Assembly: GCA_946699065.1 (NCBI GenBank)
Contig: CAMPDV010000216.1
Span: 124,001-188,000, forward strand
Source of the DNA: Loxodes magnus
Lineage: Eukaryota; Ciliophora; Karyorelictea; Loxodida; Loxodidae
DNA length: 64,000 nt
Direction: 5' to 3'
The translations under genes and the position numbers were made by a program. The stretch's first letter is position 1. The number at the start of each line of letters is the position of its first letter. Below the pieces are notes generated by a model. The model saw nothing but the letters and a program-made list of their open reading frames with translations. It made no database searches and was not told the DNA's origin. Shown here piece after piece: positions 3,600-60,900 of this stretch.

Positions 3600-5440
3600 A
3601 TCTAATAAGGGGTTTATGAATGATTAGAGTAAATAAAAAGCAGAAAAGTAAGAACTTAGTTTCATATTTTACATCCTCTGGTATAATAATAGAGTAGCAT
3701 CTAGAAACATAAATTTGCTTGTAATTTGCATGATAAAAAAATGAATTAAAGTTAAAAGAGTATATATAGTAAATCTAAAAAAGCTAAATATGCATTAATT
3801 TAAATAAAGCTTCTAGAATAAAACTAACAGCATATATGTTTGGCATATAAATCTAATTCATCGAATGCAAATAACCATATTACAGTACTAGGATAGTTAA
3901 AGTTAAGCAGATTTTTCCATTTATTGATGTATAATCCTTTTAAGATATCAAGTAGTTCTTACATTATAAACCATATTTAGCCTAAGTTTAAAAGTTATAT
4001 TGAAATTTGTAGTGTTAAAATTATATTAGGAATTAACGTTTTTATATAAATAGTTAATTAAAGAAAAAGGTTTATAAAAACCTATTTAAATACAACATAA
4101 AATGCAGGAATAAAGGGTATATCCTAAAATAGCTGTGAAGCCGTAATAGAAATCTATATCAATGCTTAGTCAAGTAAAGTCAAGGAAATCGCTAATTGAA
4201 GAATGTGAAGACTAAGGTTAAGAAATTAACTAGAGCTTAATAGAACTGGAGGAGGAAAGAAAGTTTGCAAGCTAGGTAATTAATTAGTAACATGTGAGGA
4301 ATAGAGTTCATAATCTGAAGCATTTAAAAGTAAAACGTATTCTAGATAAGTGGCATCACATGCTCCAGATGGACTTTGCTGTAAATTAAAGAGACAATGA
4401 ATAGCCTTAAGTTGGAGATTTGAAAATATTGAGATAGTATAAGCTAAGTAAAAATATGAAAAATCAATCTTCTAGTGAGAAATAGCTCATTCCATGTTAT
4501 TAGCAAAACAATTCTTTACTTACTTCAAATTATAAGTATTAAATAATACTTTAAGATAAAAAAGTAAATTAAAAGGAGATCTTACAGGGAATTTAAAATG
4601 GATAATTAAATGCAATACAATAGAGAAAGTATTAAGAAATAAGTTATTTAGATTCTTAGGAAGAAATCTTAGAGTAAAAATAATATTCTGACTTTGTAAT
4701 TAAGAATTTTTAAACTCTCTAGAAATAAATTAAAAGCTTGCGAAATTCAAAATAAAAAGGTAAAAATCTTTTGGTATAAAATGAGAACAATTAAATGGAA
4801 GACTCACTGGATAATCTATCTTCTATTGAATTAGCGTGAAATGAAAAATCAAGCACATCATTTTCATAATTTTATATAAAAAAGGATTATTTTTCAATTT
4901 CTGACACTGTTAGTGCTAAAAGTTCCTCAAAATCTTGGATCAATTAAACTTTCAATTTTAATTCTTATGTAATAAGCTCTTCATGATAAAGTTACGGAGA
5001 TTAAGCAAGTTTTAGTCAAGCTAGTTGCAAATTAAAAGACAAATGGTCAACTAAATAGATGGAGTGTTTTTTTCTCTGCATAATGGTTTTAATATCTTCT
5101 TACTTTTATTTGATAGTGAAAGGATGAAACAGCAAAACTTAATTATATATAATTTATATTTCTCAAAATCTTCCTAACTTATTAATAAAAATTACTAGGT
5201 ATGCATGATTATTATTAGCTTTTATTAAACATTATTAAAATAAAAAGTTAAGCTTGTATATTTCTAGAATAATCTCGCTAAGATAAAGATAAAGAAATTA
5301 TAAATGGAAGTATAATTTTAAGGATCATTAATTGAGTCAAGAATCGTTGCATATAGCTCACTATCTTTAATTATTTAAGTTGCTATGATAACTTGAAATC
5401 CTAAGATATAACTTAATATATCTAAGCTTTGGTTAGTTTT
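3600..5440 (-). pseudogene. Beta gene copy in E1, decayed
   Basis: This block is homologous to beta in E2 (30795-32282). The best preserved part is around 4800-5050, the counterpart of the ELLALTESGLEKEFF region of beta. The first third of the gene, including the start region, is not recognisable beyond about 5440, and there are numerous indels downstream. Treated as a relic. Confidence 0.45.
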
Positions 5441-7391: not shown

Positions 7392-8378
7392 TCATGTACA
7401 GGCTACTAGGTAAAAATAAAATAGAAATAAAATTGCCAAGCAAAAAAGCAAGAAAGCTACATAGTCAGATTCTTTTTTGTTTCCTTCTTCAGAAGCTTCT
7501 TTCTCGTTTTCTTCTTCATTATTTTGAAGCTATAAATTAGAGAATATTCTATCACTAGAAAATCATTCTTAATTTGACTGAGATATTGAAGTACTTTCTT
7601 TGCTAATAATGCTAAGATTGGTAAATGAGCTTTAATTTTATAAAGGTTAAGTGCTATTTGCTTTTCTAATTATTTCATTCACTTGTTCTAGGGGTACTTA
7701 GCTACCCTTTACCAAGATTTATTTATTAGGTATGTTTTTCAAATCTGTTAAGTTTCTTTCCTTTAGCTTTTTTGTTTAACTACAAGGAATAAACCATTAT
7801 GAAGTCATAAACTTTTTCCAATCTTATGCTTCTTAATATTCCATTGCTATCGAGCTTATATTACCAACTTTAGCTTTTAGTTTGCTTTATTTTTATTATT
7901 AGAGTGCTTAAACTTTGCTAGCTGGTATTTTTTAATTAACATATTGAGAGCTATTCCAAATAGACTAGCTTTAATTACTTCTTATTTTAGGGGTGGATTC
8001 TGAATCCTTTGAGATAAATCTCTTATTTTAACTTTTCTTATTCATGTTTTGATTTAGACTCTTTAAATTTCCTTTAAAAGGTTGTTCCAAGACTTTAAGC
8101 CTTTCAGTATAGACCGTTCCATCATCAGCATAGTAATCATCGCAAATTTATCGTATCTTTTAATGCTATAAGTTCTAAGTTTCAGCACCTTTGAAGCCTT
8201 TCTATTCCACCTTGCTTTTAAGCTTTTACTCGGAGCCTTTCTCCTCATAACTCGTCCATAACCAGCATGCCTTACCTTATTTACCCAAAGAAAGACCCCT
8301 TTTCTTTAGTTCCAAAGTCTCCTAGTTTTTTCTTGTAGATATGCGTTTTAGGTATTCATCCGAATTCTGTTTCTGCAT
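7392..8378 (-). CDS. Gene alpha, copy 1: Myb/SANT-like, C-terminal membrane-anchored protein (328 aa)
   Basis: The frame is open from ATG at 8378 to TGA at 7394-7392 with TAA/TAG read as Gln and one internal TGA (codon 272) read as Trp. Total length is 987 nt, identical to alpha copies 2 and 3 although this copy has compensating small indels near the N-terminus. Residues about 40-85 (ACWLWTSYEEK ... KIRQICDDYY) resemble a Myb/SANT repeat: Trp followed by Thr and an acidic cluster, then an R-x-x-x-C-x-x-aromatic ending about 41 residues later. A Ser/Gln/Lys-rich middle follows, then a very acidic stretch and a single C-terminal hydrophobic helix (YVAFLLFCLAILFLFYFYLV) ending at the stop. Protein divergence from copies 2 and 3 with preserved frame argues for function. 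The start is supported by the shared TTTTATAA(A)AAATG context. Family unknown; membrane-tethered DNA binder is inference. Confidence 0.75.
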
Positions 8379-10974
8379 TTTTTATAAAAAAATACTTAGA
8401 GCAATTTAAATTTCACTGAAGGTTTAATTATATTCATAACAAATTGAAAAGTCCTTGCTAGCTATATGCTCAATATGGAGTATAAATTAAAGGTAATTTA
8501 ATTATTAAACATTCACATTTAATCAAAGTATGCTGGTAACTATCGCCATAGAGTGAAACCATGATGTAAATAAATAGCTAAGAGAATATTACTAGTATTT
8601 TGAGAAGGACTGTAAAAGGGATATTGAAGGTAAGTAGTATTTTGAGTTGATCCATAACTAGGATGATAAACAACAGATGTAAATATGATTTCTTGTCACA
8701 TAATGTTTATTAATAGAATGGCTAAGAGAGAGATAAAGCGATATCATAATTAGTCAAATTTTAACGGCCAACAGCTTTAAGAAATAGAAAAATTGATACT
8801 TAAAACTGGTAAGGCTTATAAAAAATTATTGGCTAAATTTCTAGTAAGGGAAAGAATATTTAACTAAATAAGCTGAGCATTATATGAATAGAATAAGAGA
8901 GGCATGCTAGTAAAAAAGAGATATTGGTAATGCTTAGTGCTAGGAATTTTTTATTAAGATATTTTAATTAAATTTTTTACTTTGAGTATGTAATTTCGAG
9001 TTAGTTATTTTTTTAAGGGATATAAACATTTTAGATATCACTTTAAAAGAGTACCTTTAGTAAATGATTCCAGAAGCTTCATTGTAAATCCAAAAGTTAT
9101 AAAGACATTTATAAAGATTAACATATAGTACTTATGAAAAGCACGACAATTTGAATACTCTCCACTAGCAAGAAACTTTAACTTGCTATTATTGCAAATA
9201 AAAAATTGACAAATTATCTTATCAAATATATGAAAATCAACAAAACCTTAATATGAATCATATTCTACTAAATACAAATGTATTGTCTAAAGTCTTTGTT
9301 ATATTTCTTTCTGTTAATTTCCTAAGTAGAAACTCAAACTTTAATTAGTTTCAATAAATTATAATTAAGTCTCCTTAACATCTCTTCTAAGCATCAAATG
9401 CATTTCACCTGACTTTTATACTTTAAAGCTAATTTATCTACCAAATTTACTTATAATTTCTCCTAAATTGCATTGAATATTCACCATATAATATATTAAG
9501 TAGATTTCTATTTATTACAAGAGAATATTTTATTAAGCTTAATATAAAAAATAGAATATATTTGCACTTGGATCTTTAGATGAAATATTAATTCTAGATA
9601 CTATCATTTTCTTGTTAATCGGGTTTAGATTATGATTTAATACAGACATATAAGGTTAACTTAGGTTTAGTATATCAAGGTATTTGATTTAAATTTATTG
9701 ATTACTAATATGACTATTATTAACTGACTCTCTAGCAGAATTATTTAGAAAATCTCTTTAACTACATGTGAAGGTTAATTTCTATTATTAATTTTACTTT
9801 AATGAAAAAGGATCTTCAAATGTAATGCTTCGAAATATCAACCCTTTTAGCAATGCAGGTATCAAGACCCCATATGAAATGTTAGATGATTTGGCGAGAT
9901 ATGAAAATACCTCTATCAACCCGAATCTAAAATAGAAACCATTAACTATTTTCCAGGAACTTAAAAAAGATTATGAATTTAATTGTTGGTGATAAGTCTA
10001 GCAAGATAAATTATTTATCTATTTAATTAATAATTAAATCATTATAAGATAAGACATTATCAAGCTATATTAAAATGATAAGTGTAACTTATCCTTAAGT
10101 TTATATCATTTATTAAAAGATTAATTATTATTATGCTAGTTACTATTATTTTACCCTTACCAATACCTATATCTTTAGAATCATAATATCATCTTAAAGT
10201 TTTCCTGGTTGCTTCTTTCTATTCTTCTTAATCTTTCTTCTTGTGCTCAATTGAAGTAGCTATATTAATTAACTATTAGTCTATATATTTCTAGCTCAAT
10301 ATATTAATTTAATTATATCTGATAATAGTAGCTTATATTACTAGATACTTAAATAAATACCATTGTCTAAAGAATCCTATTAACTATTAGCTATATATCA
10401 TTATTTTCTTTTCCCTATGCAAGCAGATAACGTATCTACTTTTTCGATACTTTCAATACAGGAATTACTAAATCTAATATTCCGCTATTTGTCAGGTTTA
10501 TTGAAGTTGCTTTTAATAGTAAACCAGAGTAATTTAATCTACTCCTGATAAATAAAATCTTAAAATGATAATGATGTTGGTCTTAAAGACTCAAGCTACT
10601 TAGAGTAAAATCTCGGATATTCTAAATATAAATTTTCTTACCTTAAATATTAGACTCTTTAGTGGTTCTAGAGTCTAAAGATTCAAAAACTTAGTTTAAA
10701 AATTCTGACTCTTATATTAAATCTTTTGATTAATAGAAGTATTAAAGTTTAGCTATGCAAAGATATCCTTTGGCTAGAAATGTAGATATTAGTTTCCAAA
10801 CTGAAAAGTAAAGATAAAGAAATAGAAATCAAATTATTATGATAATGGTCTCTATATTAAAAAGTTGTGAGTAACAAAATAATCAAATGGAAATATATAA
10901 GGACTAGGAAAAAAGCTTATTAGATTAATTTAGGCAAAATTAATAGGCTAAAATTAAGAGTTTGAAGATAGGAC
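8379..10974. other. Gene-poor part of E1
   Basis: This stretch is homologous to 25.6-27.1 kb and 41.0-43.5 kb but shows no frame with convincing codon structure. It probably contains the alpha upstream region. A short poorly conserved stretch at 8380-8460 is the counterpart of the leader found before alpha in E2 and E3. Confidence 0.4.
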
Positions 10975-14079: not shown

Positions 14080-17030
14080 AATCAAATTTATTTATTATTA
14101 TTTAAATTAATTTTTTCTTTACATAAGTTATTTTATCCATATCTAGCAAGACATTTATTTTATATAAATAAAAATTCTTGCATACATAACTTTATCTTTC
14201 CTTCTTCTACTCCCCATTTTAAAAATTCATAAAATAGCTTTAAAGTATTTATTGACTTTTATAAATTAAATTTCTAAATTTTTCCCCAATTGATGTCTAA
14301 TCCTTTTAGATAGCTTTTAGTAATAATGTTCCTTGAATCATAATAATTTTGTACATATGGAAATAAAAAATAGGAATATTATACATAAATTTAAAGGTAT
14401 TGGTTAATACTTGCAATGATATTATAATTTAATAATTTAATTTCTGATTCTAATATTCTGATATTTTAGTGGGTTTAATTAACTTAGAGTTGCCTATTTT
14501 AGTCTAAGTTGTACTATCTCTACTCTAAGTTTGATTAGTAAAATGAAGATTTGAATTTGCTTATCTAAATTAGCTTTCTCTTTTAAAATTTAATTAAATT
14601 ATTTGATTTAAGCTACTTATATTAAAATTTTAAGGTTTTAATACTTTTATTATTTATCTAATAATATAAAAATTAAGAAGCAACATTAGGAGTTTTATAT
14701 ATAACTAAGTCTTAAGAAATATATTGAAGTTATAACTATAAATCATAAAATAAGTAAAGGTTAGAGAGTACAAAACCTAAAAATATAAATAATGTAACTG
14801 ATTGTAACAATATACCTTTAGATCTATAAACTCTAAGGAATCTCTTTAAAATAATAAGTTATATATAAATGTAGATAACTGCCTTTTTAATAAATAATGC
14901 CACCGTTTGTCTTTCCTAGTTTTTAAATCAGAAAGGTTAAAATTACCTTTAGGATTTTAAAAGCGAAAAGTTAATCTCAACTTATAAATAGAAAGCTGAC
15001 GTTAATAACTTTAATTTTATTCTTAGCTTGTAAAAATAAGCTTAAATGATAATGATTGATTATTACTATAAATAAGTTCTAAGATCCAAATATTTTAAAT
15101 AATAGCCATTATTTTTCTGAATAATAGTACTTATATTTAAAATTATTATTCCTTTTATATTATAAAGGCTTTAGTAAGAACTAGGTTGTAGAAAATAAGA
15201 AAAGAGAAAGTATTTTACCCACTAGAATAATATAATACTTAATAATCTAAAATATAATAAAACACCTTTAATTTGGTTAAAAATAATAATTAATAAGAAT
15301 AAGCTTAAGTTCATAAGCAGCATTATCAATATAAATAGCAGGAAACTATTAACTATTATTTGATAATTTAAGTGAATAGTTTTGAGATTAACTTTAAATT
15401 AATTAGATATAAATTAAGAGAATAATTCAAATTTAATTTAATCATGCTTATTCTTAAGAGTATATTCATATAAAAATTACCTAAAAATAGCTTAAAACAT
15501 ATATAATTTGATCTTAGTTTAAATTCATTAATTTAAATAATAAGAACATAATTTAATAAAAATTATCAAGAACAAATAGATAAATCATTCTTAAAAAAAT
15601 CTAAATCATTAAATATATCAACAATTACTTATTTAAGGTAAAGGAAACTAAATTTAAATTAAGTGCATAAAACAGATCCTAAAAAATTGCAGAAGCTTAA
15701 AGTATTTTTTCTAGTTTTTATCTACAATTTTTATAAAAAAATATTAATTTCGAAAAAGATTTTAGCATATATCATTTCAAATTTAAAAAATTTGTATTCA
15801 TTATATTTTTATTTTATCTTACAACTTCGAAATGTAATAAAAGAAAAATGTATTTATGAATTATGCTAAAGAAACTTAAATATTAAAAAAATATAGAGGA
15901 CACTGGCTGAAGGTTTTTTTATTTCAAATATGATAATAAAAAAATAACTTTTATATGTTTCTTTAAGTGAAATATTTTGCTTTTAATGGTGCCTTTTCTG
16001 AGATTAAGATTTTGGCTAAATTTAAGTCATTGAATGCTTAAGATTAGAGTTTGATGAAATCATATTTTTAATAGGTATCTATTGAAATTTCTTGAAATAG
16101 AGCTATATAAATTTTATAAGGTTCTTGCAATGACTTTTATATCAATTGATGATAAACCTTCCAAACTAATAAATTTCTTTTTAAGTTAATTATATCCTTA
16201 AAATAATTTATAAAGCAATAATAATTCTTATTTTAAACATCTTTTAGATTTAACTCCAGAGTAATTTAAATAAAAGTTCTATTTACAATTTTATGATTTT
16301 AATAACTAAATACCTTAATTATTCTTTTAAAGTATTCCTTAGAATTAATTACATTCAGAATAATTTTTATATCAAACCTAACTTTATTTTCCTTTTTAGC
16401 TATGAAATATTAATTTATTTTATGTCTTAACTTAAACAATTGTATCATCTTTCCTTTTAAATATAAATTGATAAAAAGAGACAGCTCTTTCCAAATTTGT
16501 TCAATTTATTTCTTTTTATTTCACTTTTAATTACTTTATAGCAGTTCTACTTTGCTTTATAAAAATAAAATTAAAAGCTTATTTTAATAATACTCTAATC
16601 TATTTGATTATCTTTATACTCTCTAATTATTAATCTAAATATAGTGATATTACCTTATAAAGCTTTCATTTTTATAAGAAATAAATTAACTATGAATATG
16701 TGAAAATTGGTTCTTTATTATATTTATACTAGTATATCTAGTTTTTATCTCCTTGCTTTTATTTAGAAGGTAAATTTTATCTCTATTTGATATACTTCAA
16801 TTTCATATTTTTAGCTTTATATTTTAGTCTTATAACTTAATTAGAAGAGACTAAAGCTCTTTAATGCTTTGTTAATCCTTTTAATTGTTTTATCTTCTTT
16901 TTCCTTACTTTTATAAATGTAAATTTTGTATAGCTTCTTTATAATTTGCTAGTATATAGAAAAATTATCCTTAAACCAATAAAATATAAAAAGGCTCAAA
17001 TATAGAGTAAATAAGTATTCATATCTAGGA
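14080..17030. other. AT-rich intergenic region downstream of the receptor gene
   Basis: No supported gene. Several frames are open by default under the reassigned code, but codon-position GC gives no signal. The end of the minus-strand receptor gene is not marked by an in-frame TGA near 17030, so part of 16700-17030 could still be its tail. Confidence 0.4.
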
Positions 17031-20000
17031 GATCTTACTAACATCCAGTGAAAGCTATTTATGACATTCAGGCTTAAAATTCCGATAGTCTGGTTCTTCA
17101 AATCTCTCGATTATAGTGAATGATCTAAATTAGGAAATATTTACTGCTTTAATTTTCTGTGGATTGTTATACTCTAACTTAAATTAGCTTCATCCATCTT
17201 TGTAAGTACTTAACTGTTGCTATTATGATTTACTTTGCTTAGCTTTAGTAAGCTCGACTAATTTTCTGAATTAGTGTCCATCTTCTAAGATATTATTTCT
17301 TATTCTTGAGAGCTTAAATCTTGGATACTGCCTCGAGTATTGATAGCTATTTTATAGTAAGTCTACATTTTTATCAAATCACTTAGCATATTAACATTCG
17401 CTGATAACCTGAATGCGAATCTAAACCAGAGAGTGTTGTCTTTTACCTTTCTATATAGATATTTAGGGAAATATTTATATAGAACTATCAGAGTAATCAC
17501 TATAATACAAAATCATCCAGAAAATAGCAATAAAATTCAGGTTAGTTAATCTTAACCCTCAATAAAAAAGTGCAAAGTTGTGAGGAAACTAGACCAAATC
17601 ACGAGAGCGAAGCAACCAAACTAAAGACAGTTTAATCTTCCATAGTTATAAGGCTTTAGTTTATACGACATGATACCAAACAAAATAAAAGTTATAGTAT
17701 ATACTAATGAATGAACTTTCCTATTAAAATCACCTAAACACTAGTTGAGCAATGTTGCAACTACTTGGAAAAAACTTTAAAGAGACATAAAGTTAATAGA
17801 TTATCTAATTACAGTTTCCAGTCATAACTGTTGTATTAAAGGTTTAAAAAAGCTGATAGAAATTATAAAGAAGAAAGAGCAAATGGTTCCCGAAATTAAG
17901 TAGTCTAGGTGATCATCCCTCCAGCATAGAATGTAACAATCTCGTTGTAAAAAACTTTCATTGAAATTTAAACTTCCGCTCTTATCAAAATCTACCGCTT
18001 CTACACATTTAAAAACATCACTTATAGAATAGATAACCGGTACTAAACTGACCTAACTTAGAATAGGTAGAACATAAAATGAAATTTAAGTTATATATCT
18101 TATGACTAATATGTTCCATCGTACTTCTAACTTAAGAAATATTCATATAAGCATAGTCATTCATGTGACTGAAATAAAGATAACAATGTAAAACACCTGA
18201 CTGAATTATATAGCTCTTATATATTTAAGCCAGTAGAAATCAAACTTTAGAATTGAAATTATGTTTCACAAGTCTTCATTAACATATGACAAGCTTGGAC
18301 CAACAGAAAGAAACTAGCATTGCTAAATAATAAATAGAAAGTATTGCAGTCCATCAGTAAAAGTCATATATTTTTTATCTTTAATCTCTTCTATTTCTAA
18401 GTTTCTCCAACTTCTATAGCTTACTATTAGTAAAAGGCCTGAAATAAAGACTCAGATTGAGTATGTTATATAAACTAAATCTTCTCCTTTGTGAAACGCT
18501 TGAATATCTCTTTTTCTAAAAGGACAATCTATATCTTCTATAAAGTCTTTAGGAATTGCAGTAGTTCCATCTCCTCATATTATTTACTTTTCAAGCTATA
18601 GTATAACAGGACATGCTGCACAGAATGTTCCTATCTTCTAGTCTTTTCAAGTCTTATTTTAGTTGTCATTTCTTATGTTTATTATATCATAAACTTTAAG
18701 ATTTGGATCATTTGAATTCTTTTCTATTTATATTTTTCCTTAGCATCCCAATATTTTTATAGCTCTTAAGGCATTGTTTGTACTAGAATAGTCAAGGTAA
18801 TTTTATCCTGCTTGTATTTAATAATTTATAGCATTTCCTAGTAGTAGAGCAGCATCATAATTAAAGCAAGTTAGTCAGTAAGGATCATTTCCAAACACTT
18901 TTTAGTGCTTCTTTCTTACGAGATCTCCTAATTCCCCTCTATAAGAAGAAGGAGTGTATGAAAAAGCTCCTTTTATTACTTCTAAACTTTTTTTCCAATT
19001 TTAGTTTGTATCTGCTTGCTGTATTCATTCCGAGACAAACCATTCATTCGCTAGCCATACAAAATCTCCAGCTCTAGCTCCTAAATCATATAAATAGGGG
19101 AAAATAAATTCATAAGCATCATATTAAAAGCAGACACATATTCCAATTCTTGCTTTACTCTCGTAAAATGCTTTTACTTATGGTTTCCAATTTTCATCTC
19201 GAATTTCCTGTTCATTTAGATGATATTACCTTAAGTTCTCGGGATTAGCTACTTCTATTCCTCATTTCTAAGCTTCTCTTATTATGCTCATTCCAAGGTC
19301 TTAACCTCATTTATTAGATTAATACAAAATGGCTATTTTCTTTCATTTGTAGATTTGGATTAATCTAATTTAAAGCTAAGACATGTAAGCATCTGAATAG
19401 ATTGTTCTAACAAAGGTAGGAAATCTTGTTTTGTTAGATAAAATCTTGTTAGTTGTAACAGCTCCAACCACTGGAATATAGTTATCATGCTAGTATAAAA
19501 ACTGAAGTCAATTTGAAGTCATTCAAGATGTGTAAGGAGCTAGCATTCCTACTCCATATTTATCCTTTTGACTCTAATACTATTATTCTACGTAATCTGC
19601 TTCTCAAATAGTAGCTCCAATTCCATATCCATTTCCTTTCAGTATGAAGTTCTATAAAATTTCCTTTTTCTGATTTATTTCTAGAATCGCAAGCTCTGCT
19701 CCATGAATCACGTCTACCTAAGTAACTGCGATGGTACCATCAGAGTTAGAAATGTTAGATGAATATGAAATTTCAATTGTGACTTTATCACATGGAGGTG
19801 TTAACTCTGATCCTAGAAATATAAGTTCTTAAGTTCATTATATAGTTTTATTGCTTAAGTAAATTTAGCCTACTTCTTTTATCTCATTCCTCTAATAATT
19901 ATAAATTTTAAACTGACTTTCCTTCTTCAGCCCATTTTATAGAAATTTCTTAATATCTGCATTTCCATTAAAATGCTTTAGGAATATATTGATGCTGTCT

Positions 20001-20806
20001 ACAGTATGTTCAAATTATTCTAGTTGAGCCTACTCTTATGAAGAGAACAAGCCTAAAGAAATGAAAATTATTCCTTAGCGTTGATCTTTCTATTAGAGAA
20101 CCTTTTTATAAATTTCGATAAACGCATTTTATGGTAAAATTCATTGATAGCCTCTAGTATTCAAACTCAACATATCAGCAATTTCCTTTAGCTACTGTAG
20201 ATTATCTCCTTCAGCTAGGAATATAAAAATGCTTAATCCCTAGGATTTTAAAAGCTCTCCATAGAACAAAACTTTTTCCTATGCGTTAGTATCTCGAGGA
20301 ATTAAATATCTAACTACTAGATCTATTTATTCATCTTAATAAAATTAGACTAAAGAAGAATGTAAATTAGTACCTTGGAAGATTCCTATTCTTCTTCAGT
20401 TAAAGTAATGAAGTAAGATTATAGTTGCTTCTATTTCTTCCTTTTCATCTAGATCAGTAAAAACAGAACAATTTCATAATTTCCCATACTTTTACTGTCC
20501 AACTATGAGATGAATTATTTAGCTCTCATTACAAAATTTGGAGATCCAAAAAGTGAATATTTAGTTTTGGGTGATATCAACTATCATACTTATCGGAAGC
20601 TTTTTATTAATGTCTTATAAAGTAGAAGCAGTTTCATACTAGCTATTTATAATTAGCTGTATTACTTGCATCTAATACCTCTACTAAAGAGATTAAATCA
20701 CCAACTCTTTTAATTCTCTATTACTTCTTTCGCTATACAAAACATCAACGTATTATGTCTATGCATATTGACTAAAAAAGTTGAATATTAAGAGAAATAT
20801 AACCAT
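17030..20806 (-). CDS. Large multi-pass receptor with periplasmic-binding/ANF-type ligand-binding ectodomain
   Basis: ATG at 20806 starts a signal peptide (MVIFLLIFNFFSQYA). The next roughly 750 residues resemble the bilobed receptor family ligand-binding region (ANF/LIVBP type): for example KKIAILYQSNKWGQDLG and an IREAQKWGIEVA strand-helix unit around residue 500, and a GARAGDFVWLANEW stretch. About eight hydrophobic helices follow from residue 776 (ITYSIWVFISGLLLIVSY first), then a Ser/Gln-rich cytoplasmic tail. At least ten in-frame TGA codons fall where Trp is expected (checked in frame at codons 500 and 785), and many TAA/TAG codons fit Gln. A cell-surface sensor coupled to a multi-pass membrane module is the likely role; class C GPCR-like architecture is possible but unproven. 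No in-frame TGA occurs near 17030, so the C-terminus is uncertain. Confidence 0.85.
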
Positions 20807-26020: not shown

Positions 26021-27152
26021 TCTACTTAATATATTATATGATTAATATTCGATACAATTAAGAAAATTATAAGCAAATTGGTAGAAAAATAGCTTTAAAG
26101 TATAAAAGTCAGGTGAAATGCATTTAATGCTTATAAGATATGTGAAAGAGGCTTAATTATAATTTATTGAAATTGATTAAAGTTTGCATTTCTACTTAGG
26201 AAATTAACAAAAAGAAATATAAGGATGACTTTAGACAACACATTTGTATTTAGTAGAGCATGATTTATATTAAGATTTTTTTTTTTAATATATTTGACAA
26301 TATAATTTGTCTATATTTGATTTGCTATAATAGCAAGACAAAGTTCTTGCTAATGGAGAGTATTATAATTGTCATGCTTTTCTTAAGGATTATATATTAT
26401 CTTTATCAATGTTTTTATAACTTGTGTATTTACAATAAAGTTTCTGGTATCATTTATTAAATGTACTCTGTTTCAATACTCTTATAATTAATTTCTAAAA
26501 TGTTTATATCACTTAAATATATAACTAACTCAAAATTACATACTTAAAGATAAAAAATTAATAAAATCTCTTAATAGAGCATTCTATGCTTAAGCATTAT
26601 CAATATCTCTTTCTTACTAATATGTCTCTCTTATTCTTTTCATATAATGCTCAGCTTATTTAGTTAAATATTCTCTCTCTTACTCAAAATTTCACCAATT
26701 TCTTTTATAATCCTTACCAGTTATATGTATCAACTTTTCTATTTCTTAGAGCTGTTTGTCGTTAAAACTTGATTAATTATGATATCTCTATATCTCTCTT
26801 AGCCATTCATTTAATACTCATTGTGTGACAAGAAATCATACTTTAAATCTGTTGTTTATCATCCTGGTTAATGAATAAATTCAAAATACTACTTACCTTC
26901 TATATCCCCTTTTATAGTCGCACCTAGATACTTTTAATATTTTCTTCGCTGATTATTGTCAACATGATATGACTCTCTATGATGATAGCTACCAGCATAC
27001 TTTTATTAAATGTAAATACTTAATAATTAAATTATCCTTAGTTTATACTCCATATTGAGCATTTAGTTAGTCAAGGATTTTTCAATATGTTAAGTATTTA
27101 ATTTACCTGCCGGTGAGATTTAAATTGCCATATACATTTTTTTATAATAAAA

Positions 27153-28139
27153 ATGAGCAACCATTCAGGTGAATGTCTAAAAATCATATCTGTAGAAAGA
27201 AGATAGGTGAGTTTGGGATCCGAAGGTTAGAAAAAAATGCTTTCCTTGGGTAAATAAGGGTAGGCGTGTAAGTTATGGACGAGTTATGAGGAAAAAGACT
27301 GCGAGCAAAAGCTTAAAAGCAGGGTGGAATAGAAAAACTTCAAAGGTGCTGAAACTTAGAACTTATAGCCTTTAAAGATACGATAAATTTGCGATGATTG
27401 GTATGCTGCTGACGGAACGGTCTATATTGAAAGACTTAAATATTCAAATCAGTCTTTTATAGGAAATTTAGAGAGCCTTAATCAAACAATGAATAAGCAA
27501 AGTTAAATTAAGAGATCTATCTAAAAGGATTCAGATTCCACTCCTAATAAAAGAAGTAATTAAGGCTAGTCTAATTCGAGTAGCTCTCAAGATATTAATT
27601 AAAAAAAGCCAGCTAACAAAGTTTAAGCACTCTAATAATAAAAATAAAGCAAACTAAAAGCTAAAGTTGGCAATATAAGCTCGATAGCAATGGAATAATA
27701 AGAAGCATAAGATTGGAAAAAATTTATGACTTCATAATGGTATATTCCTTGCAGTTAAACAAAAAAGCTAAAGGAAAATAATTTAACAGATTTTATAAAC
27801 ACACCTAAGCAATAAGTCTTGGCAAAAGATAGCTTTGTGTCCCTAGAATAAGTGAATGAAAGAATTCGATAAGTAAATAGCACTTAACCTTTATAAAATT
27901 AAAGCTAATTTTCCAGTCTTAGCTTTATCAGCGAAGAAAGCACTTCAATATCTCAGTCGAGTTAAGAATGATTTTCTAGTGATAGAACATTCTCTAATTT
28001 ATTGCTTCAAAATTAAGAAGAAAACGAGAATGAAACTTCAGAAGAAGGAAGCAAAATAGAATCTGACTACATGGCTTTCTTGCTTTCTTGCTTGGGAATT
28101 TTATTTCTATTTTATTTTTACCTAGTAGCCTGTATATGA
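27153..28139 (+). CDS. Gene alpha, copy 2: Myb/SANT-like, C-terminal membrane-anchored protein (328 aa)
   Basis: ATG at 27153 to TGA at 28137-28139 is exactly 329 codons with TAA/TAG as Gln and internal TGA (codon 273, QSSQE-W-FSSD) as Trp. Residues about 40-84 (ACKLWTSYEEKD ... KIRQICDDWY) have Myb/SANT spacing: first Trp to last Trp 41 residues, with Phe in the middle aromatic position. After this come a Ser/Gln-rich region, an acidic patch (QEENENETSEEGSK) and one hydrophobic helix (YMAFLLSCLGILFLFYFYLV) running to the stop. No signal peptide is seen, so a tail-anchored membrane protein facing the cytosol or nucleoplasm is likely. Nearly identical to copy 3 and clearly diverged from copy 1, always in frame. 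The fusion of a DNA-binding-like domain with a tail anchor is inference; no family recognised. Confidence 0.8.
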
Positions 28140-30794: not shown

Positions 30795-32282
30795 ATGGAG
30801 TTTCTTAAGAAGCTATTCTCTTAATTCATTTATAAATAGTCAGCTACTAAAAACCCAAATAACCAGAAAAAGTTTAAATAAGTAAATCAAAACAAGCCAA
30901 AATTATAAAACCTATTGCTTTATTAATTCGACATAGATTGATATATTAAGCTATATCTTAGGATTTCAAGTTATCATAACTCTCTTAAATAGTTAAAGAT
31001 ATTAAGTTATAAAAAAATATTCGTTACACAATCGATGGCCTTTAAAATTGTATTTCCATTCTTATTTCTTTTATCTCTATCTTAACGAAAATATTCTTGG
31101 AAGATACGAATTTATCTTTTAGATTTAATGATGCTTAATAAAAGCTAATATTAATCATGTATAATCTAGTAATTTTAATTAATAAGTTTGGAAGAGTTTG
31201 AGAAATATAAAAATATATAAAATTAAGTTTTGTTGCTTCATCCTTTCACTAACAAATAAAAGTAAGAAGATATTAAAACCACTATGCACAGACTAAAAAA
31301 ATGTATCTATTCAGTTGACCATTTGTCCTTTATTTTGCAAATAGCTTGACTGAAACTTTCTTAATTTCCATAGCTTTATCATGAAGAGCTTATTTTATAA
31401 GAATTGAAATTGAAAGTTTTATTGATCCAAGATGATGAGGAACTTTTAGCACTAACAGAGTCAGGACTGGAAAAAGAATTCTTTTTTACATAAGATTACG
31501 AAAATAAACTGTTTGATTTTTCATTTCATGCTAATTCAATGGAAGATAATTTATCAAATGAATCTTTTATTTTTTTATTTTCCTTTGGCACCAAAATATT
31601 TTAATCTTCTAACCTTGAATTTTGCAATCTTTGAATTTATTTCTAGAGATTTCAAAAATTCTTAATTACAAAGGCAGAATGCTCTTTTTACTCTAAGACT
31701 TCACCCTATGAATCCAAATAACTTGACTCTTAATATTTCATCTCTTATTGTAAAACATCCAATTATCCTTTTTAAATTTCCTATAAATTATCCTTTTAAT
31801 CTATTTTTTTATCTTAAAGTCTTTCTTAATACTTACGATTTGAAGTAAGTAAATAATTTTTTTGCTAATAACATGGAATGAATTACATATCGCTAGATTA
31901 TTATTTTTTGATATATTTACTAAGCTTTTATTATCTCAATATTTTCAGATCTCCTACTTAAGGCTAATCATTGTCTCTTTAGTTTATAGCAAAGTCCATC
32001 TGTAGCATTTTATACCATTTATCTAGGATACATTTTACTTTTAAATGATTCAGATGCTGAATTTTATTCCTCCAATGCTATTATTTTATTACCTTGCATG
32101 CAAACTCAATTTTCTCCTCCAATTCTATTAAGCTTTAGCTAAAATTTTAATCTTAGTCTTCAAGTTCTTCAATCAGCGATTTCCTTGAATTTACTTGACT
32201 AAGCATAGATCTAGAATTCTATAATGGCTTTGTGACTATATTAGGGTTTATTCTTTATTTCTACATTTTTCCCTTTATTTGA
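30795..32282 (+). CDS. Gene beta: 495-aa protein with C-terminal hydrophobic helix, unknown function
   Basis: ATG at 30795 to TGA at 32280-32282 is 496 codons, confirmed in frame by coordinates. Compared with the E3 copy, differences fall often at third positions (TTA/TTG, AGT/AGC, CTG/CTA, TCA/TCC, and TAA/TAG both read as Gln), the signature of a translated frame. The N-terminus is basic (MEFLKKLFSQF, then KNPNNQKKFKQ), a hydrophobic stretch lies near residues 75-100 (AFKIVFPFLFLLSLS), a charged core follows (QDDEELLALTESGLEKEFF), and the protein ends in a hydrophobic helix (VTILGFILYFYIFPFI) directly before TGA. Like alpha it may be tail-anchored. It lies 2.65 kb downstream of alpha on the same strand. 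No known domain recognised. Confidence 0.6.
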
Positions 32283-32699
32283 GTAGGTATTTAAAACCTT
32301 TTTCTTTAATTAACTATTTATATAAAAACGAATATTCCTAATATCAATTTAGCACTCTTTTAATGTTTAATGATATTTTTATCATGCAAATTGCAAGAAA
32401 AATTATATTTCTAGGTTTTATTTCTTTCTGATACCATAGGGTGTATATAATGCTGATTTAAGTTATAATTTTTTCTGGTTCTTATTAACTCTAATCATTC
32501 ATAATCCCCTTATTAGATCATATCTAGTTAGCTTATTTTTGTCTGGCATTTTTAATACTTAATATTTTAGTTTAATTTGACTCTGGTTACAATTAGTTAT
32601 CTACTAAATAGCCTTATGATATTCAAATAAGATAGGCTTAATTTATAACCCAATAATCTTATAGTTATAAATAGTCAAGCTAGGCATTTTATGTGTTAG

Positions 32700-40990: not shown

Positions 40991-43559
40991 TAATCTGATT
41001 AATTTTGCATAAATTAATCCACTAAGCTTTCCCCTAGTTCTTATATATCTCAATATGTTCTTTTTATTACTCTCAACTTGTTTATATAAGAGATTATTAT
41101 CATGTCCATTTTATTTCTATTCCTTTATCTTTATTTTCAGTTAGGAACTAAGATCTACACTTCTACCAAAGAAGTTCCTTTCTTAGCTAAGTTTCCATAC
41201 TAATAGTAATCAACAGATTGAATCAGAATTTTAGTATAAAATTCTTTAATTTTTAAATTCTAGAGACACTAAAGAGTTTAATCTTCAAATTATTCAAATT
41301 ATTTTAGTATCTCAGATTTCATTCTAAGCAGCTTTAGTCTTTAAGACTAACATCATCATCATTTTAATATTTTATTTATCAGTAGTAGACTAAATTACTC
41401 TGACTTACTATTAAAAGTAATTATAATAAGCCTGATAAATAGCAGAGTATTAGGTCTAGCAATTCCTATATTGAAGGTATCGAAAAAGCAGATAAATTAT
41501 CTGCTTGCTTAGGGAAAATAAAATAATGATATATAGCTAATAGTTTAAAAAGGATTCTTTAAGCAATGATGTTTATATAAGTGCTAGTAATATAAGCTAC
41601 TATTATTAGATATTATTAAATAAGTATATTGAATAAGAAATATATAGACTAATAGCTAACTAATAAAGCTATTTCAGAATGAAAGAATATAAGAAGGAAG
41701 GTTAAGAGGAAATAGTTAGAAACAGCTAAGTAAACTTCAAGATGATATTATGTTTCTAAAGGTATAGTTATAGGCAAGGGTAAAAAATAGTAACTAGCAT
41801 AGCAATAATTAATCTTTTAATAGATAGCTAATACTTTAGGATAAGCTAAAGTTACATTTTATTATAATTTGATAATACTTATATTATAATATTTAAATTA
41901 TTAATTAAATGGATAGATAATCTATCCTGTTATATTTATCACTTACAATTAAGATTATAATCTTTTTAAGTTCCTGTAATAAATAGTAAAGGGCTGATAT
42001 TTAGGCTAGGTTTGATAGTAGTATTTTTCATAATTCGTCAAGTCATCTTACATTTCGTATGAGGTCTTGATATCTATATTGCTAAAAGAGTTGACATGTA
42101 GAAGCATTATATTTGAAGAATCTTTTTCATCATAATAATATACAATAGAAATTAACCTTCACATGTAGCTAATGAAATGTTCTAAAGAAATCTGGTGTCT
42201 AGTTAGTTAATCATAGTTATATTAATCATCAAATAAACTTAATTAAAATACCATAATACACAAACCTAAGCTAGCCATATATGATGTATTAAATAATAAT
42301 CTAAACCTGAATATAAGAAAATAATAGCAACTAGAACTAATATTTCATCTAAAAATCAAAATAGAAAGATACTCTATTTTTTATATTAAGCTTAATAAAA
42401 TAATCTCTTGTAATAAATAGATATCTACTTAATATATTATATGATTAATATTCAATACTATTTTGAAAAATTATAACCAAATTGGTAGAAAAGATTAGCT
42501 TTAAAGTATAAAAGTCAGGGGAATGTCCTTGATGTTTATAAGCTATGTAACAGGAGCTTAATTATAATTTATTAAATTAAAGTTTGCGTTTCTACTTAGG
42601 AAATTAACAAAAAGAAATATAAAAATAAATTTAGACAACACATTTGTATTTAGTAGAATATAATTCATATTAATATTTTGCTTATTTTCATATATTTGAT
42701 AAGATAATTTGGTAATATTTTATTTGCAATAATAGCAAGCTAAAGTTTCTTGCTAGTGGAAAGTATTAAAATCTTCATGCTTTTCATAAGCACTATATAT
42801 TATCTTTATCAATGTATTTATAACTCGTGGATTTACAATGAAGGTTTTGGTATAATTTAATAAAAGTTCTCAGTTTCAATACTCTTATAAATTAGTTTCT
42901 AAAAGATAATATCACTTTAATATATAACTAACTCAAAATTACATACTTAAAAATTAAAAATTAATTAAAATATCTTAATAAAACACTCCAAACACTATGC
43001 ATTATCAATATCTCTTTTTTTACTAATATGCCTCTCTTACTCTATTTATATAATGCTCAGCTTATTTAATTAAATATTCTTTCCCTTAATCAAAATTCAC
43101 CAATATATTTTTATAAGCCTTACCAGTTATAATTATCAACTTTTCTATTTCTTAGAGCTGTTGGTTGTAAAAATTTGACTAATTATGATATCTCTTTATC
43201 TCTCTCTTAGCCATTCTTTTAATATTCGTTGAAACCAAAATATCATTTTTTATATCTGTTGATAGTTATTCTGGCTAATGAATCAATTCAAAATACTATT
43301 TACCTTCTATATCCCCTTTAATAGTCGTACTTAGATACTTGTTATATTATCTTCTCTATTTATTAGCTGAATGGCATCACTCTCTATGGTGATAGCTACC
43401 AGCATACTTTTATTAAATTTGAATGTTTAATACTTAAATTACCTTTAATTTATACTCCATATTGAGCATTTAGTTAGTCAAGGATTTTTTAATATGTTAT
43501 GTATTTAATTTACCTGCCGGTGAGATTTAAATTGCCATATACATTTTTTTATAATAAAA

Positions 43560-44546
43560 ATGAGCAACCATTCAGGTGAATGTCTAAAAAGCATATCTGT
43601 AGAAAGAAGATAGGTGAGTTTGGGATCCCAAGGTAAGAATAAAATGCTTTCCTTGGGTAAATAAGGGTAGACGTGTAGATTATGGACGAGTTATGAGGAA
43701 AAAGACTGCGAGCAAAAGCTTAAAAGTAGGGTGGAATAGAAAAACTTCAAAGGTGCTGAAACTTAGAACTTATAGCCTTTAAAGATACGATAAATTTGCG
43801 ATGATTGGTATGCTACTGACGGAACGGTCTATATTGAAAGACTTAAAGATTCAGATCAGTCTTTTATAGGAAATTTAGAGAGCCTTAATCAAACAATGAA
43901 TAAGCAAAGTTAAATTAAGAGATCTATCTAAAAGGATTCAGATTCCACTCCTAATAAAAGAAGTAATTAAGGCTAGTCTAATTCGAGTAGCTCTCAAGAT
44001 ATTAATTAAAAAAAGGCAGCTAGCAAAGTTTAAGCACTCTAATAATAAAAATAAAGCAAACTAAAAGCAAAAGTTGGTAATATAAGCTCGATAGCAATGG
44101 AATAATAAGAAGCATAAGATTGGAAAAAATTTATGACTTCATAATGGTATATTCCTTGCAGTTAAACAAAAAAGCCAAAGGAAAATAACTTAACAGATTT
44201 GATAAACACACCTAAGCAATAAGTCTTGGTAAAAGATAGCTTTGTGCCCCTAGAATAAGTGAATGAAAGAATTCGATAAGTAAATAGCACTTAACCTTTA
44301 TAAAATTAAAGCTCATTTTCCAGTCTAAGCTTTATCAGCGAAGAAAGCACTTCAATATCTCAGTCGAGTTAAGAATGATTTTCTAGTGATAGAACATTCT
44401 CTAATTTATTACTTCAAAATTAAAAAGAAAATGAGAAAGAAACTTCAGAAGAAGGAAGCAAAATAGAATCTGACTACATGGCTTTCTTGCTTTCTTTCTT
44501 GGCGATTTTATTTCTATTTTATTTTTACCTAGTAGCCTGTACATGA
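43560..44546 (+). CDS. Gene alpha, copy 3: Myb/SANT-like, C-terminal membrane-anchored protein (328 aa)
   Basis: ATG at 43560 to TGA at 44544-44546, 329 codons, the same length as copies 1 and 2. Internal TGA at codon 273 (Trp) is conserved. Compared with copy 2 only scattered changes are seen, for example C-K-LW to C-R-LW before the Myb-like motif. The C-terminal helix is YMAFLLSFLAILFLFYFYLV followed by ACT and the stop. Beyond the TGA the copies quickly lose frame, which supports this TGA as the true end. Same interpretation as copy 2. Confidence 0.8.
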
Positions 44547-46950: not shown

Positions 46951-48365
46951 ATGATAGAGTTTCTTAAAGTGTTATTCTCTTAATTCATTTATAAATTGTC
47001 AGCTACTAAAAACCCAAATAACCAGAAAAAGTTTAAATAAGTAAATCAAAACAAGCCAAAATTATCAAACTTATTGCTTTATTAATTCGACATAGATTGA
47101 TATATTAAGCTATTTCTTAGGATTTCAAGTTATCATAACTCTCTTAAATAGTTAAAGATATTGAGCTATATGCAAATATTCTTTACTCAATCGATGGCCT
47201 TTAAAATTGTATTTCCATTCTTATTTCTTTTATCTCTATCTTAGCGAGATTATTCTAGGAATATACAATCCAAGCTTTTTTTAATATAGCTTAGTACAAG
47301 TAAATGATAAGCATGCATAAGCTAGTAATTTTAATTAATAAGTTTGGAAGAGTCTGAGAAATATAAAATATATAAAATTAAGTTTTGTTGCTTCATCCTT
47401 TTATTATCAAATAAAAGTAAGAAGATATTAAAACAACTATGCGCAGACAAAAAAACTCCATCTATTCAGTTGACCATTTGTCCTTTATTTTGCAAATAGC
47501 TTGACTGAGGCTTGCTTAATTTCCGTAGCTTTATCATGAAGAACTTATTTTATAAGAATTGAAATTGAAAGTTTTATTGATCCAAGATGATGAGGAACTT
47601 TTAGCACTAACAGAGTCAGGACTGGAAAAAGAATTCTTTTTTACATAAGATTACGAAAATTAACTATTTGATTTTTAATTTCCCGCTAATTCAATGGAAG
47701 ATAATTTATCCAATGAATCGTTAATCTTTTTATTTTCATTTGGCACCAAAATATTTTAATCTTCTAACCTTGAATTTCGCAACCTTTGAATTTATTTCTA
47801 GAGATTTCAAAAATTCTTAATTACAAAGGTAGAATGTTTCTTTTACTCTAAGACTTCTCCATAAGAATCTTTATAACTTCTTTCTTAATACTTCATCTTT
47901 TGTATTGCATCTGATTATTCATTTTAAATTCCCTATAAATTATCCTTTTAATCTATTTTTTTATCTTAAAGTTTTTCTTAATATTTATAATTTGGAGTAA
48001 GTAAAGAATTGCTTTGCTATTAACAAGGAATGAGTTACTTCTCACTAGAAGATTGATTTTTCATATTTTTACTTAGCTTATATTATCTCAATATTTTCAA
48101 ATCTCCTTCTTAAGGCTAATCATTGTCTCTTTAGTTTATAGCAAAGTCCATCTGTAGCATTTGACGCCAATTATCTAGAATACGATTTACTTTTAAATGA
48201 TTCAGATTCTTAATTCTATTCTTCCCTTGCTACTATTCCTCATATCACTTTGGCACTACAAATTCTAAAATACCTTTTAATCTTAAACCAAATATGGTGA
48301 CACCATAAGAACTATGGACTATCTTATTAGGTTATACATTAAAAAAAACGTACAAATCTGCTTGA
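46951..48365 (+). pseudogene. Beta gene copy in E3, frameshifted
   Basis: Starts MIEFLKVLFSQF, one codon longer than the E2 copy, and follows it closely, but between the start and the common word TCATTGTCTCTTTAG it has a net loss of seven bases, one of them in an A-run near 47360. The frame therefore breaks, and the C-terminal hydrophobic helix of the E2 protein is replaced by unrelated sequence ending at a TGA near 48363. Silent differences downstream show that it was under selection until recently. Confidence 0.5.
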
Positions 48366-48779
48366 CTTTGACTATCTAAGCACTGTAGTATGGTTATTAA
48401 TCTTTAATTGACTAGCATTATATCTGTATATACACGCTTTAAAGTGTTGTTGATATCGTTTTTATCATGTAAAGCATAAATAAGTTTATACTTCTAGGTG
48501 TTATTCTATTATGGTATCAATTGGTATAATAATACTTATCTAAATTCTTACTCTTTCTGCTTTGTATTCACTCTAACCCTGCTTAAACCCTTTATTACCA
48601 TACTTAGTTAGTGTATTTTTGCCTGACAAGTTTAATAATTAATATGTTAGTTTGATTGACTCTGTAAATTAGCTATGTGAATAAGCTCGACATTGAAATG
48701 GATTACATTAATAGGATTGAGAGAAAAATAAATAAAAGGAATATATATAAAAATATAAACTTTAAGTAGCATTTCAGAT

Positions 48780-49500
48780 TTTATTAAATGGCTGAAAAGG
48801 ATATTGAAGATAAAATTGCTAAAAATAGAAAAAGAAATAGAAATAAAGTGGTAGATGATAAGTGCTTAACAATACTCTTAAAATATAGAGTTAAAAAGAT
48901 GAACAAGAGCAAAATATCACATTACTACTATTGAGATAAGTAAAAGTAAGATTCTGAGATTAATAGTTAGCAATAGAACATACTAATGAGATAAGTAATT
49001 TAATTAAGAGCTTAAAATTTAAGAGATAAGGGATATGTCTAGAAGTTTGCAATTAGAAGCTAAACTAGCTTCTTCCTTTTTTTTGAGTTATATGATATAA
49101 CCATAACTATCTTAATTAAATATAATAGATCATTAAAACCATAAAATAAATAGCTGAATCTAATTTTTAATATGCATTGAACTAAAAATGATAAATGATG
49201 TAATCTCTCTTAATTAAAGATAGTTTGAATAAATAAAATGAAAATCTAAGATATTTTTAATATCAAGCGTTACAAATAATCTGCTTAAAAATGGTAAACA
49301 ATTAAATTTAAATAAGATCTTATAAATTTAGTAATTTTCATCTGCTATCATTTATGCGAAAATCACATCCATATAATCTAATAAAATCAAATCAAAAGAC
49401 AAAAGTTTAATTGTAATTATAATTAGATTATAGATCTATCAATTTCTTAGTGACTCAATTGAAAAATTATCAGAAAATAAATTTTTCAAAGATGATAGAG
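48780..49500 (+). pseudogene. Gamma gene copy in E3, damaged
   Basis: Contains both gamma blocks with the intervening sequence (48900-49430) that is lost in E2. Relative to E4 it has several indels. The last block (QFLSDSIEKLSENKFF-like, near 49440) is still readable. Confidence 0.35.
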
Positions 49501-50993: not shown

Positions 50994-51750
50994 ATGAACA
51001 ATATAAAGCTTAATCTAATTTTATTTCTAACTGTTTTGTTTATTAAATCAGCCAATACTTACCCATTTATTGCTTGAAAAGTCGTAGCTCATTAGATCAC
51101 AATAAAAGTTATATTAATAGATATTGTTTCTTTATAATACTGGCTAGGCAAAATCAAATTTATCATAAAAAGGATATTTCTCCCCTTCTAAGTAAACTTA
51201 CTTTAAGTCAAAAATCTAAGTATTTAGTAAAGAAAAGTTCGCATAAATAATAAAATTTTACCTTTATGGAACGTAAATTGCTGAAGCATATGCTCTTTGA
51301 GTTAGTTTATAGTTACTTATCACTCACTAGTTTTACTTACTATCATATATCTAAATTTTATCTATATTAGCTTGTTATTAATGAAAATATCCTCCAAATG
51401 TATAAACCTTAGAATCAACTTAGTCACATCCAAATACGCATGAAGAATTTAGAATTTACGAAATGCTTTCGAATTTTTTTGACTCTAAACTAAATACTTC
51501 ACATTTCGGTACATCTATATAAAGATAGTTGCTGTAAACTCTTCCCGAAATGATGTAAATTAGTTTCCTTTTATTGAAGATTGTTCTATGAAAACTTCTT
51601 TATATTTGCATCTTATAATTTTATGTACCTTTATAGTTGTAAATATCGAATCTAGTTTAACTAAATTTTTATCCTCCTGAAATTATTAAACTTGCTTAGG
51701 AAATTTACTCAATTTAAGTTGCATTTCCATTTGTCGCTTCAATTTCCGCC
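50994..51750 (+). CDS. Probable signal-peptide membrane/secreted protein, partial model
   Basis: ATG at 50994 opens a classical signal peptide (MNNIKLNLILFLTVLFIKSA). The best coding signal further on (51200-51660, lowest GC in the third position) lies in another frame: ITHQFYLLSYIQILS, HPNTHEEFRIYEMLSNFFDS, LPEMMQISFLLLKIVLW. An intron or frameshift between about 51050 and 51200 is therefore needed and is not located. The protein seems to have two or more hydrophobic helices. This block is missing after U3 copy 2, where homology jumps from 35708 to the sequence at 51633. Confidence 0.4.
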
Positions 51751-59969: not shown

Positions 59970-60900
59970 ACCATACAAGAAATATAAGAAATTATAAAAG
60001 CAATTCAGAATGGAAAAGCAGCTGGTCCAGACGGAATAAAAGGTGAACTTCTGAAATAAGGTGAATATTATTTTTTAATAATTCTTCACTCTTTTCTGAA
60101 TAATATGTTAAGACTTAAAAGAATCCCTTTGGAATTAAATATATCGATGATAATTCCAATTTTAAAAAAGGAAACAAAGATGATTGGAAAAACTGACAAC
60201 CTATTTTTCCTATTAATAGCATTATAAAACTATATGATAAAGCTTTAACAAAAAGACTATACAATCTAATTTATTAGAGAAACTTGATTTATCCTTCTTA
60301 AATGGGATTTATGAAAAATAGATAAATTACTTAATAAATTTGGATGATATAATAGATAATTGATAACTATCTGGAATGTACAAAAGGGAAAACTAAAATT
60401 ACCTCAACTCTGATAGATATTGAAAAAATATATGAATCAATAGAAAAAATATTTTTATTTGATTAACTTAAGAGAGTTAAGTTAGCTACCACTTGGTCTT
60501 ATATTAGCCTTACAATTAATTATATAAGAACCTAATCTTTTTATTTATTATAGATGGAATGAACATCAGAACATTTTAATACAACAATGGAGCTATGTAA
60601 GGAAGTTCACATAGACCAGCTTTAGCATTGCTTTATTGTGACATTGTAATTAGATATTTGGAAAGTAAAAGTATCTAATTGGGATTCAAATGCCAGTGCT
60701 TGAGCGTTAGCTTCACTTGCAGAGTATGAGCAGATTATTTGATTCTTTATCCTAATCTGCAAAGTAGATATAGATTTTAATAATGAAACAAGAAAAGTTT
60801 TTACATTTACTCAATTAAAGATCAAAGTTACCAAATCTGAATGGATCTAATTTCTAAAGAAATATCAGGAACAATAAATCATAAATTTATGATTAGAAAT
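59970..60900 (+). pseudogene. Reverse transcriptase, frameshifted and catalytically damaged
   Basis: The first block reads AIQNGKAAGPDGIKGELLK, followed by RIPLELNISMIIPILKK (RT motifs 0-2 of LINEs). A one-base loss near 60170 shifts the frame; the next block (DDWKN-x-QP, INSIIKLYDKALTKRLYNL, QMGFMKNRQ, STLIDIEKIYESIEK) covers RT motifs 2a-3 and A. A second shift near 60580 leads to a GAMQGSSHRPALALL block (motif B). The active-site region at 60725-60747 has a two-base insertion and the second Asp of YADD is replaced by Tyr. The gene is dead. Confidence 0.75.

What the first reader, a model, noticed from the sequence alone, without database searches (positions are those of the whole stretch)
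17030..20806. All three stop codons are read as sense: TAA/TAG as Gln and TGA as Trp
In the receptor gene, TGA stands where Trp is expected in recognisable ligand-binding and membrane motifs (NKWGQDLG, AQKWGIEVA, DPYWLTCF), with TAA/TAG in Gln contexts. The same code makes alpha, beta, the 181-aa gene and the retrotransposon readable. This is seen in the sequence; NCBI table 27 or 28 (karyorelict or Condylostoma) is the established match.
Basis: partly seen in the sequence, partly recalled or inferred. Interest (0 to 1): 0.8.

Follow-up and report, generated by a model that had tools for sequence, protein, structure and literature searches.

The report
Loxodes code: stop codons as sense
This stretch of a pond ciliate's genome uses the three usual "stop" signals as ordinary letters inside its genes and uses one of them, TGA, to end genes as well; the odd code is real here but already described for this group of ciliates.

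Summary
The receptor gene (minus strand) stays open for 1,259 codons through 43 TAA, 29 TAG and 21 TGA. Aligned with 17 paralogs from the same genome, TAA and TAG sit where Gln sits, and TGA where Trp sits (1,267 of 3,084 sense partners are TGG, 47.7-fold enriched). Fourteen columns hold only TGA or TGG in 18 of 18 rows.

Two corrections. A 20-nt intron lies at 17125-17144 and the gene ends at TGA 17019-17021, so TGA is both Trp and stop. All 11 gene ends I could infer, in four families, are TGA. That is NCBI table 27 rather than 28.

Hence: already known. One side result is less expected: the only tRNA-Trp found has anticodon CCA and a fully paired 5-bp anticodon stem, while a 4-bp stem is reported for Loxodes (PMC13092985).

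The parts
17145..20806 (-). Receptor gene, main exon: signal-peptide-like start, ligand-binding region, multi-helix membrane part; 21 TGA as Trp, TAA/TAG as Gln
17125..17144 (-). 20-nt intron (GT...AG); L014 and L015 carry 19- and 18-nt introns at the same place and phase
   Evidence: comparative, no RNA evidence
17019..17124 (-). Second exon of the receptor gene, ending ...SLDVSKISQI-TGA
17019..17021 (-). TGA used as the stop codon; in frame before it the last TGA is at -158 codons, the last TAA at -57, TAG at -12 and -2
18677..19696 (-). ANF_receptor ligand-binding domain (residues 371-710)
   Evidence: E 4.5e-30
27003..28139 (+). Repeated gene 'alpha', copy 1 (start not determined), inferred stop TGA 28137-28139
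43257..44546 (+). Repeated gene 'alpha', copy 2 (start not determined), inferred stop TGA 44544-44546
7392..8678 (-). Repeated gene 'alpha', copy 3 (start not determined), inferred stop TGA 7392-7394
47393..48928 (-). Repeated gene 'beta', copy 1 (start not determined), inferred stop TGA 47393-47395
3961..5127 (+). Repeated gene 'beta', copy 2 (start not determined), inferred stop TGA 5125-5127
31238..32386 (-). Repeated gene 'beta', copy 3 (start not determined), inferred stop TGA 31238-31240
60176..60529 (+). Reverse-transcriptase (RVT_1) fragment of a retrotransposon; the 250-codon stretch given holds five TGA
   Evidence: a longer stretch (58490-61030) gave no family at E 0.1
51228..51686 (-). 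Kelch-like stretch, open only with TAA/TAG (and two TGA in the wider stretch) as sense

Best explanation
The window is nuclear DNA of the karyorelict ciliate Loxodes magnus, which uses the context-dependent code NCBI table 27. UAA and UAG mean Gln. UGA means Trp inside genes and stop close to the 3' end of the mRNA. The receptor gene shows both meanings in one message: 21 UGA as Trp, and a terminal UGA as stop after a 20-nt intron. Shown here by comparison of sequences: the sense meanings, the intron, the TGA ends. Inferred from the published model and not tested here: a Trp tRNA outcompetes eRF1 at internal UGA, and eRF1 wins near the poly(A) tail.
For: Sense meaning; the window gene and 17 paralogs, 1,150 of 1,283 columns used; TGA faces Trp in 1,267 of 3,084 sense partners (47.7-fold), as TGG does (54.9-fold); TAA and TAG are classed as Gln, ahead of Glu by 1,386 and 633 log-likelihood units; the same method recovers 56 of 59 sense codons; 14 columns are only TGA/TGG in 18 of 18 rows, and 47 of the 62 columns that hold TGG also hold TGA; an independent homolog (7 of the 19 Trp-dominated columns are Trp there); eRF1, 436 aa in one exon, with 13 TAA + 7 TAG (L040) and 15 TAA + 6 TAG (L041) in frame.
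Stop meaning. Both eRF1 copies meet their first in-frame TGA at codon 437, about where human eRF1 (437 aa) ends. The receptor, L014 and L015 end in TGA after introns of 20, 19 and 18 nt that restore one shared frame (QSFTI...). Three alpha and three beta copies share a TGA after which identity falls (0.88-0.95 before, 0.80-0.87 after, in five pairs).
Organism. Genome 705,730,643 bases against a published MAC assembly of 706 Mbp; published introns of mean 19.3, mode 17 nt; CDS 33.5% and 3'-UTR 18.6% GC; LINEs with RVT_1. Here CDS GC is 0.30 (receptor) and 0.33 (eRF1), and 0.20-0.22 in the 100 nt after the stop.
Against: No RNA or peptide data were at hand, so intron, stops and read-through are comparative inferences. 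The likelihood class of TGA could not be tested for Trp, which has only one other codon; without Trp the method put His first. Profile scores alone do not favour Trp over Tyr or Gln over Ser. 41 of the 88 columns with a TGA have no TGG in any row; at residues 847 and 995 most paralogs have TAA/TAG/Gln-type codons, and at 888 no paralog has Trp. In the distant homolog TAA cells face Lys (84 of 729) more often than Gln (68). In both eRF1 copies a TAA lies 14 codons before the stop, inside the zone where the L. magnus paper reports depletion. Gene ends were worked out for 3 of the 24 receptor copies printed. The one tRNA-Trp found has a normal 5-bp stem, which the published 4-bp mechanism does not explain.
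Confidence: 0.97

Rival explanations
1. Condylostoma-type code (table 28): all three codons are sense and all three can also be stops.
For: Same sense meanings.
Confidence: 0.02
2. UAA/UAG = Gln with UGA always stop (table 6): the TGA sites are hidden introns, frameshifts or pseudogene damage.
For: A tiny intron does exist near the 3' end, and the window holds large diverged duplications.
Against: 14 columns hold only TGA or TGG in 18 of 18 rows; codon-position bias runs through them; the 37 matches of the family carry 9 to 31 TGA each.
Confidence: 0.005
3. UAA/UAG = Glu with UGA = Trp (Blastocrithidia type).
For: Glu is the second-best class for TAA and TAG.
Against: Worse than Gln by 1,386 (TAA) and 633 (TAG) log-likelihood units (cells are not independent, so these are not probabilities); ANF_receptor falls from 93.6 to 88.1 bits; 9 of 19 aligned TAA/TAG sites in eRF1 face Gln, 2 face Glu (by eye).
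Confidence: 0.003

Closest known systems
Karyorelict nuclear code, NCBI table 27, in Loxodes magnus (PMC11441545, passages and section 9 read; Parduczia in PMC4967479, passages read)
   Same: UAA/UAG = Gln, UGA = Trp or stop; introns near 17-20 nt; GC drop after the stop; RVT_1 retrotransposons; genome size
   Different: Nothing in the code itself. In the 19 Trp-dominated columns UGA makes up 246 of 336 Trp codons, whereas UGA usage is reported as low in Parduczia (0.120% of codons)
Condylostoma magnum code, table 28 (PMC4967479, passages)
   Same: All 64 codons can be sense; termination depends on context
   Different: There UAA and UAG also end genes; here 11 of 11 inferred ends are TGA
Blastocrithidia nonstop code (abstract of PMC12153298 in search listing)
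   Same: All three stop codons reassigned, UGA = Trp
   Different: UAR is Gln here, and UGA, not UAA, ends genes

Membership tests
NCBI table 27 (karyorelict) | UAA and UAG encode Gln | tested here: met
   paralogs; eRF1
NCBI table 27 (karyorelict) | UGA encodes Trp inside genes | tested here: met
NCBI table 27 (karyorelict) | UGA is also the stop codon, and the only one | tested here: met
   11 of 11 inferred ends in four gene families; comparative, small sample
NCBI table 27 (karyorelict) | In-frame UGA and UAA depleted for about 20 codons before the stop | tested here: inconclusive
   Receptor: last TGA -158, last TAA -57; both eRF1 copies: TAA at -14; two gene families only
Loxodes magnus MAC assembly | 706 Mbp; introns mean 19.3, mode 17 nt; CDS GC above 3'-UTR GC | tested here: met
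   no species marker such as rRNA was compared
NCBI table 28 (Condylostoma) | UAA/UAG also terminate | tested here: not met
   0 of 11 inferred ends
NCBI table 6 (ciliate) | UGA is never sense | tested here: not met
   21 in-frame TGA in the receptor; TGA/TGG columns
[quoted passage not shown]
   L042 1494-1566: stem UUCGA/UCGAA, 5 of 5 pairs; other tRNA-Trp genes are not excluded
UGA reading by a cognate tRNA-Trp(UCA) | tRNA-Trp with anticodon UCA | tested here: inconclusive
   A pattern with any base at position 34 gave one match, CCA; a wider pattern did not complete (last try)

The most novel reading that the evidence does not exclude
Loxodes magnus may read UGA as Trp with an ordinary tRNA-Trp(CCA) that has a full 5-bp anticodon stem, without a UCA tRNA and without the stem shortening held to drive UGA reassignment elsewhere. 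The shift would then lie in the release factor (its eRF1 keeps NIKS but has RAQNIKS where human has TASNIKS, and FxCxxxF where human has YxCxxxF) or in tRNA modification.
Probability: 0.15. Interest if true: 0.45.

Novelty: already known. Interest (0 to 1): 0.2.

Why it matters
The window is a clean worked example of one codon with two meanings in one gene: UGA is Trp 21 times and then stop. It shows that genome tools that assume a fixed stop would cut this receptor into pieces. The code itself is in print. If the 5-bp stem of the tRNA-Trp proves to be the only Trp tRNA, the accepted mechanism for UGA reassignment would need a second route in this lineage.

Tried and rejected
Profile scoring as a test of codon meaning: 10 meanings of TGA and 10 of TAA/TAG were scored against Pfam; ANF_receptor does not separate Trp from Tyr or Gln from Ser, so I dropped it as evidence. 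Coding-potential scans found the receptor but little else clearly.

Mistakes of mine, discarded: one search translated the minus-strand loci on the wrong strand (redone); one search gave 6 of its 10 stretches in the wrong frame (redone). One search found no family above its cut-off in 10 stretches; the alpha and beta genes have no Pfam match there.

L039, the best eRF1_1 match, is Pelota by reading, so L040/L041 were used as eRF1. Structure prediction of the receptor was poor (mean pLDDT 58.6, pTM 0.39) and no fold search was run on it. A search for related proteins gave one hit at E 1e-10 among 7,010 candidates.

Gln tRNAs for UAA/UAG: one pattern gave 0 matches; a looser one gave 5, against 6 for the backwards control; the two fetched places are not tRNAs, the other three were not fetched. 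The general tRNA search scored 63 of 42,786 first-look candidates and isotypes could not be read. Actin was asked for and never answered (last try). ARAGORN on 41 loci found one tRNA, Leu. The paper cited as the source of the Loxodes tRNA-Trp claim is not held.

Full report
What was claimed.

The reading frame. On the minus strand from ATG at 20806 the sequence is open for 1,259 codons if all three stops are sense; it holds 43 TAA, 29 TAG and 21 TGA. The product has the ligand-binding domain of the ANF_receptor family (E 4.5e-30, residues 371-710) and resembles mGluR5, GABA-B and calcium-sensing receptors in the PDB (best E 8.2e-07). Under the standard code the window has no stop-free frame of 600 nt.

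Profile scores do not tell the amino acid. I gave the domain to Pfam with ten meanings of TGA and ten combinations for TAA/TAG. Trp scores 93.6 bits, Tyr 95.7, Phe 92.4, Gly 82.9; Gln 93.6, Ser 93.9, Lys 90.8, Glu 88.1, Trp 69.5.

Paralogs do. A search of the genome with the protein gave 37 matches, 30 of them cut out as loci. I used 18 (the window gene, L009, and 17 paralogs) and left out 12: near-identical copies (L010-L013, L016-L021) and partial ones (L024, L036). They were aligned with X at all three stop codons, so the alignment did not presume an answer, and codon pairs were counted in 1,150 of 1,283 columns. TGA faces TGG in 1,267 of 3,084 sense partners, 47.7 times background; TGG faces TGG 54.9 times. 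TAA and TAG face Gln 8.1 and 8.2 times; by likelihood both are Gln, with Glu next. The method recovers 56 of 59 sense codons; it cannot name Trp, which has only one other codon, and without it puts His first for TGA. Fourteen columns hold only TGA or TGG in 18 of 18 rows. Exceptions exist: 41 of 88 TGA columns hold no TGG, and at 847, 888 and 995 the window's TGA faces other residues. Rows are related, so counts are not independent events. One homolog from a metagenome (P0002, 24% identity) agrees for Trp (103 of 402 TGA cells; 7 of 19 Trp-dominated columns) and weakly for Gln: TAG faces Gln most (48 of 349), TAA faces Lys (84 of 729) before Ser (78) and Gln (68).

The true end of the gene. 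At 17144-17125 lies GTAAATATTTCCTAATTTAG. Without it the frame continues QSFTIIERFEEPDYRNFKPECHKQLSLDVSKISQI and meets TGA at 17021-17019. L014 and L015 carry different introns of 19 and 18 nt at the same place and phase, each followed by QSFTI and a TGA. Three intron lengths with one shared downstream frame are hard to explain otherwise. In frame before the stop the last TGA is 158 codons away, the last TAA 57, while TAG occurs at -12 and -2. That is the pattern reported for L. magnus, where UGA and UAA but not UAG thin out before the stop. In the other copies printed I did not work out the end.

Other gene ends. The two eRF1 genes (L040, L041) are single exons of 436 codons with 20 and 21 in-frame TAA/TAG, and their first in-frame TGA falls at codon 437, about where human eRF1 ends. 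The stretch given to one search had 437 residues because that TGA was read as Trp. A TAA at -14 in both copies runs against strict depletion. The alpha and beta genes, three copies each, share a TGA after which identity falls from 0.88-0.95 to 0.80-0.87 (five pairs); the fall is modest and these ends are the weakest of the eleven. No end needs TAA or TAG.

Which organism. G000 has 705,730,643 bases in 7,843 contigs and the window is C216:124001-188000. PMC11441545 (passages and section 9 read) gives 706 Mbp for the L. magnus MAC assembly, table 27, introns of mean 19.3 and mode 17 nt, CDS of 33.5% and 3'-UTRs of 18.6% GC, and thousands of RVT_1 copies. The window fits each point I could check. 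Species identity is an inference from these; no marker gene was compared.

How it works. Published model (PMC4967479, passages): translation is the default at UGA, and termination happens where the message ends, near the poly(A) tail. Here eRF1 has RAQNIKS where human has TASNIKS, and F in place of the Tyr of YxCxxxF (alignment; motif names recalled). One tRNA-Trp gene was found (L042 1494-1566, anticodon CCA), by a pattern that left the first anticodon base and the upper stem free; the backwards control gave none. Its anticodon stem, UUCGA/UCGAA, is fully paired. PMC13092985 (passages) says that the 4-bp-stem tRNA-Trp(CCA) was found in Blepharisma and Loxodes, citing a paper that is not held here. 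The pattern is strict, and a wider one did not complete (last try), so another tRNA-Trp gene may exist. I report the disagreement, not a refutation.

Verdict. It is a known code in, very probably, the published genome of the organism. Interest is low, except for the tRNA-Trp side result.

Noticed in passing
L042:1494-1566 (G000 C110:362491-362521): tRNA-Trp(CCA) with a complete 5-bp anticodon stem, at odds with the 4-bp form reported for Loxodes; a tRNA-Met lies 700 nt upstream.
   Followed up: partly
window 17019-20806 and G000: Large receptor family: 116 ANF_receptor matches (115 of 549 candidates scored) and 37 long relatives of this gene, one near-identical copy 74 kb away on the same contig. 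A similar protein (P0002, 1,117 aa) from a metagenome is named by its source as a transporter binding protein.
   Followed up: partly
window 18025-17930 (-), about: An EF-hand-like loop (DFDKSGSLNFNE) lies between predicted membrane helices of the receptor, seen by eye; no Pfam match there.
   Followed up: no
window 20806-19790 (-): The first 340 residues of the receptor look like a second, diverged ligand-binding domain (Pfam reports two ANF_receptor stretches).
   Followed up: no
window 25013-25164, 35412-35563, 50686-50837 (-): Three U3 snoRNA genes (69.6-73.1 bits) inside duplicated segments.
   Followed up: no
window 6061-12057 vs 45852-39858; 26000-29395 vs 42403-45840; 6074-9522 vs 29395-26003: Large inverted and direct duplications at 82-86% identity carry the alpha and beta gene copies.
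   Followed up: partly
L040 and L041 (G000 C196:19713 and 54613): Two eRF1 genes 35 kb apart on one contig, differing at 15/6/43 sites by codon position.
   Followed up: partly
window 23458-23531 (-): tRNA-Met gene.
   Followed up: no
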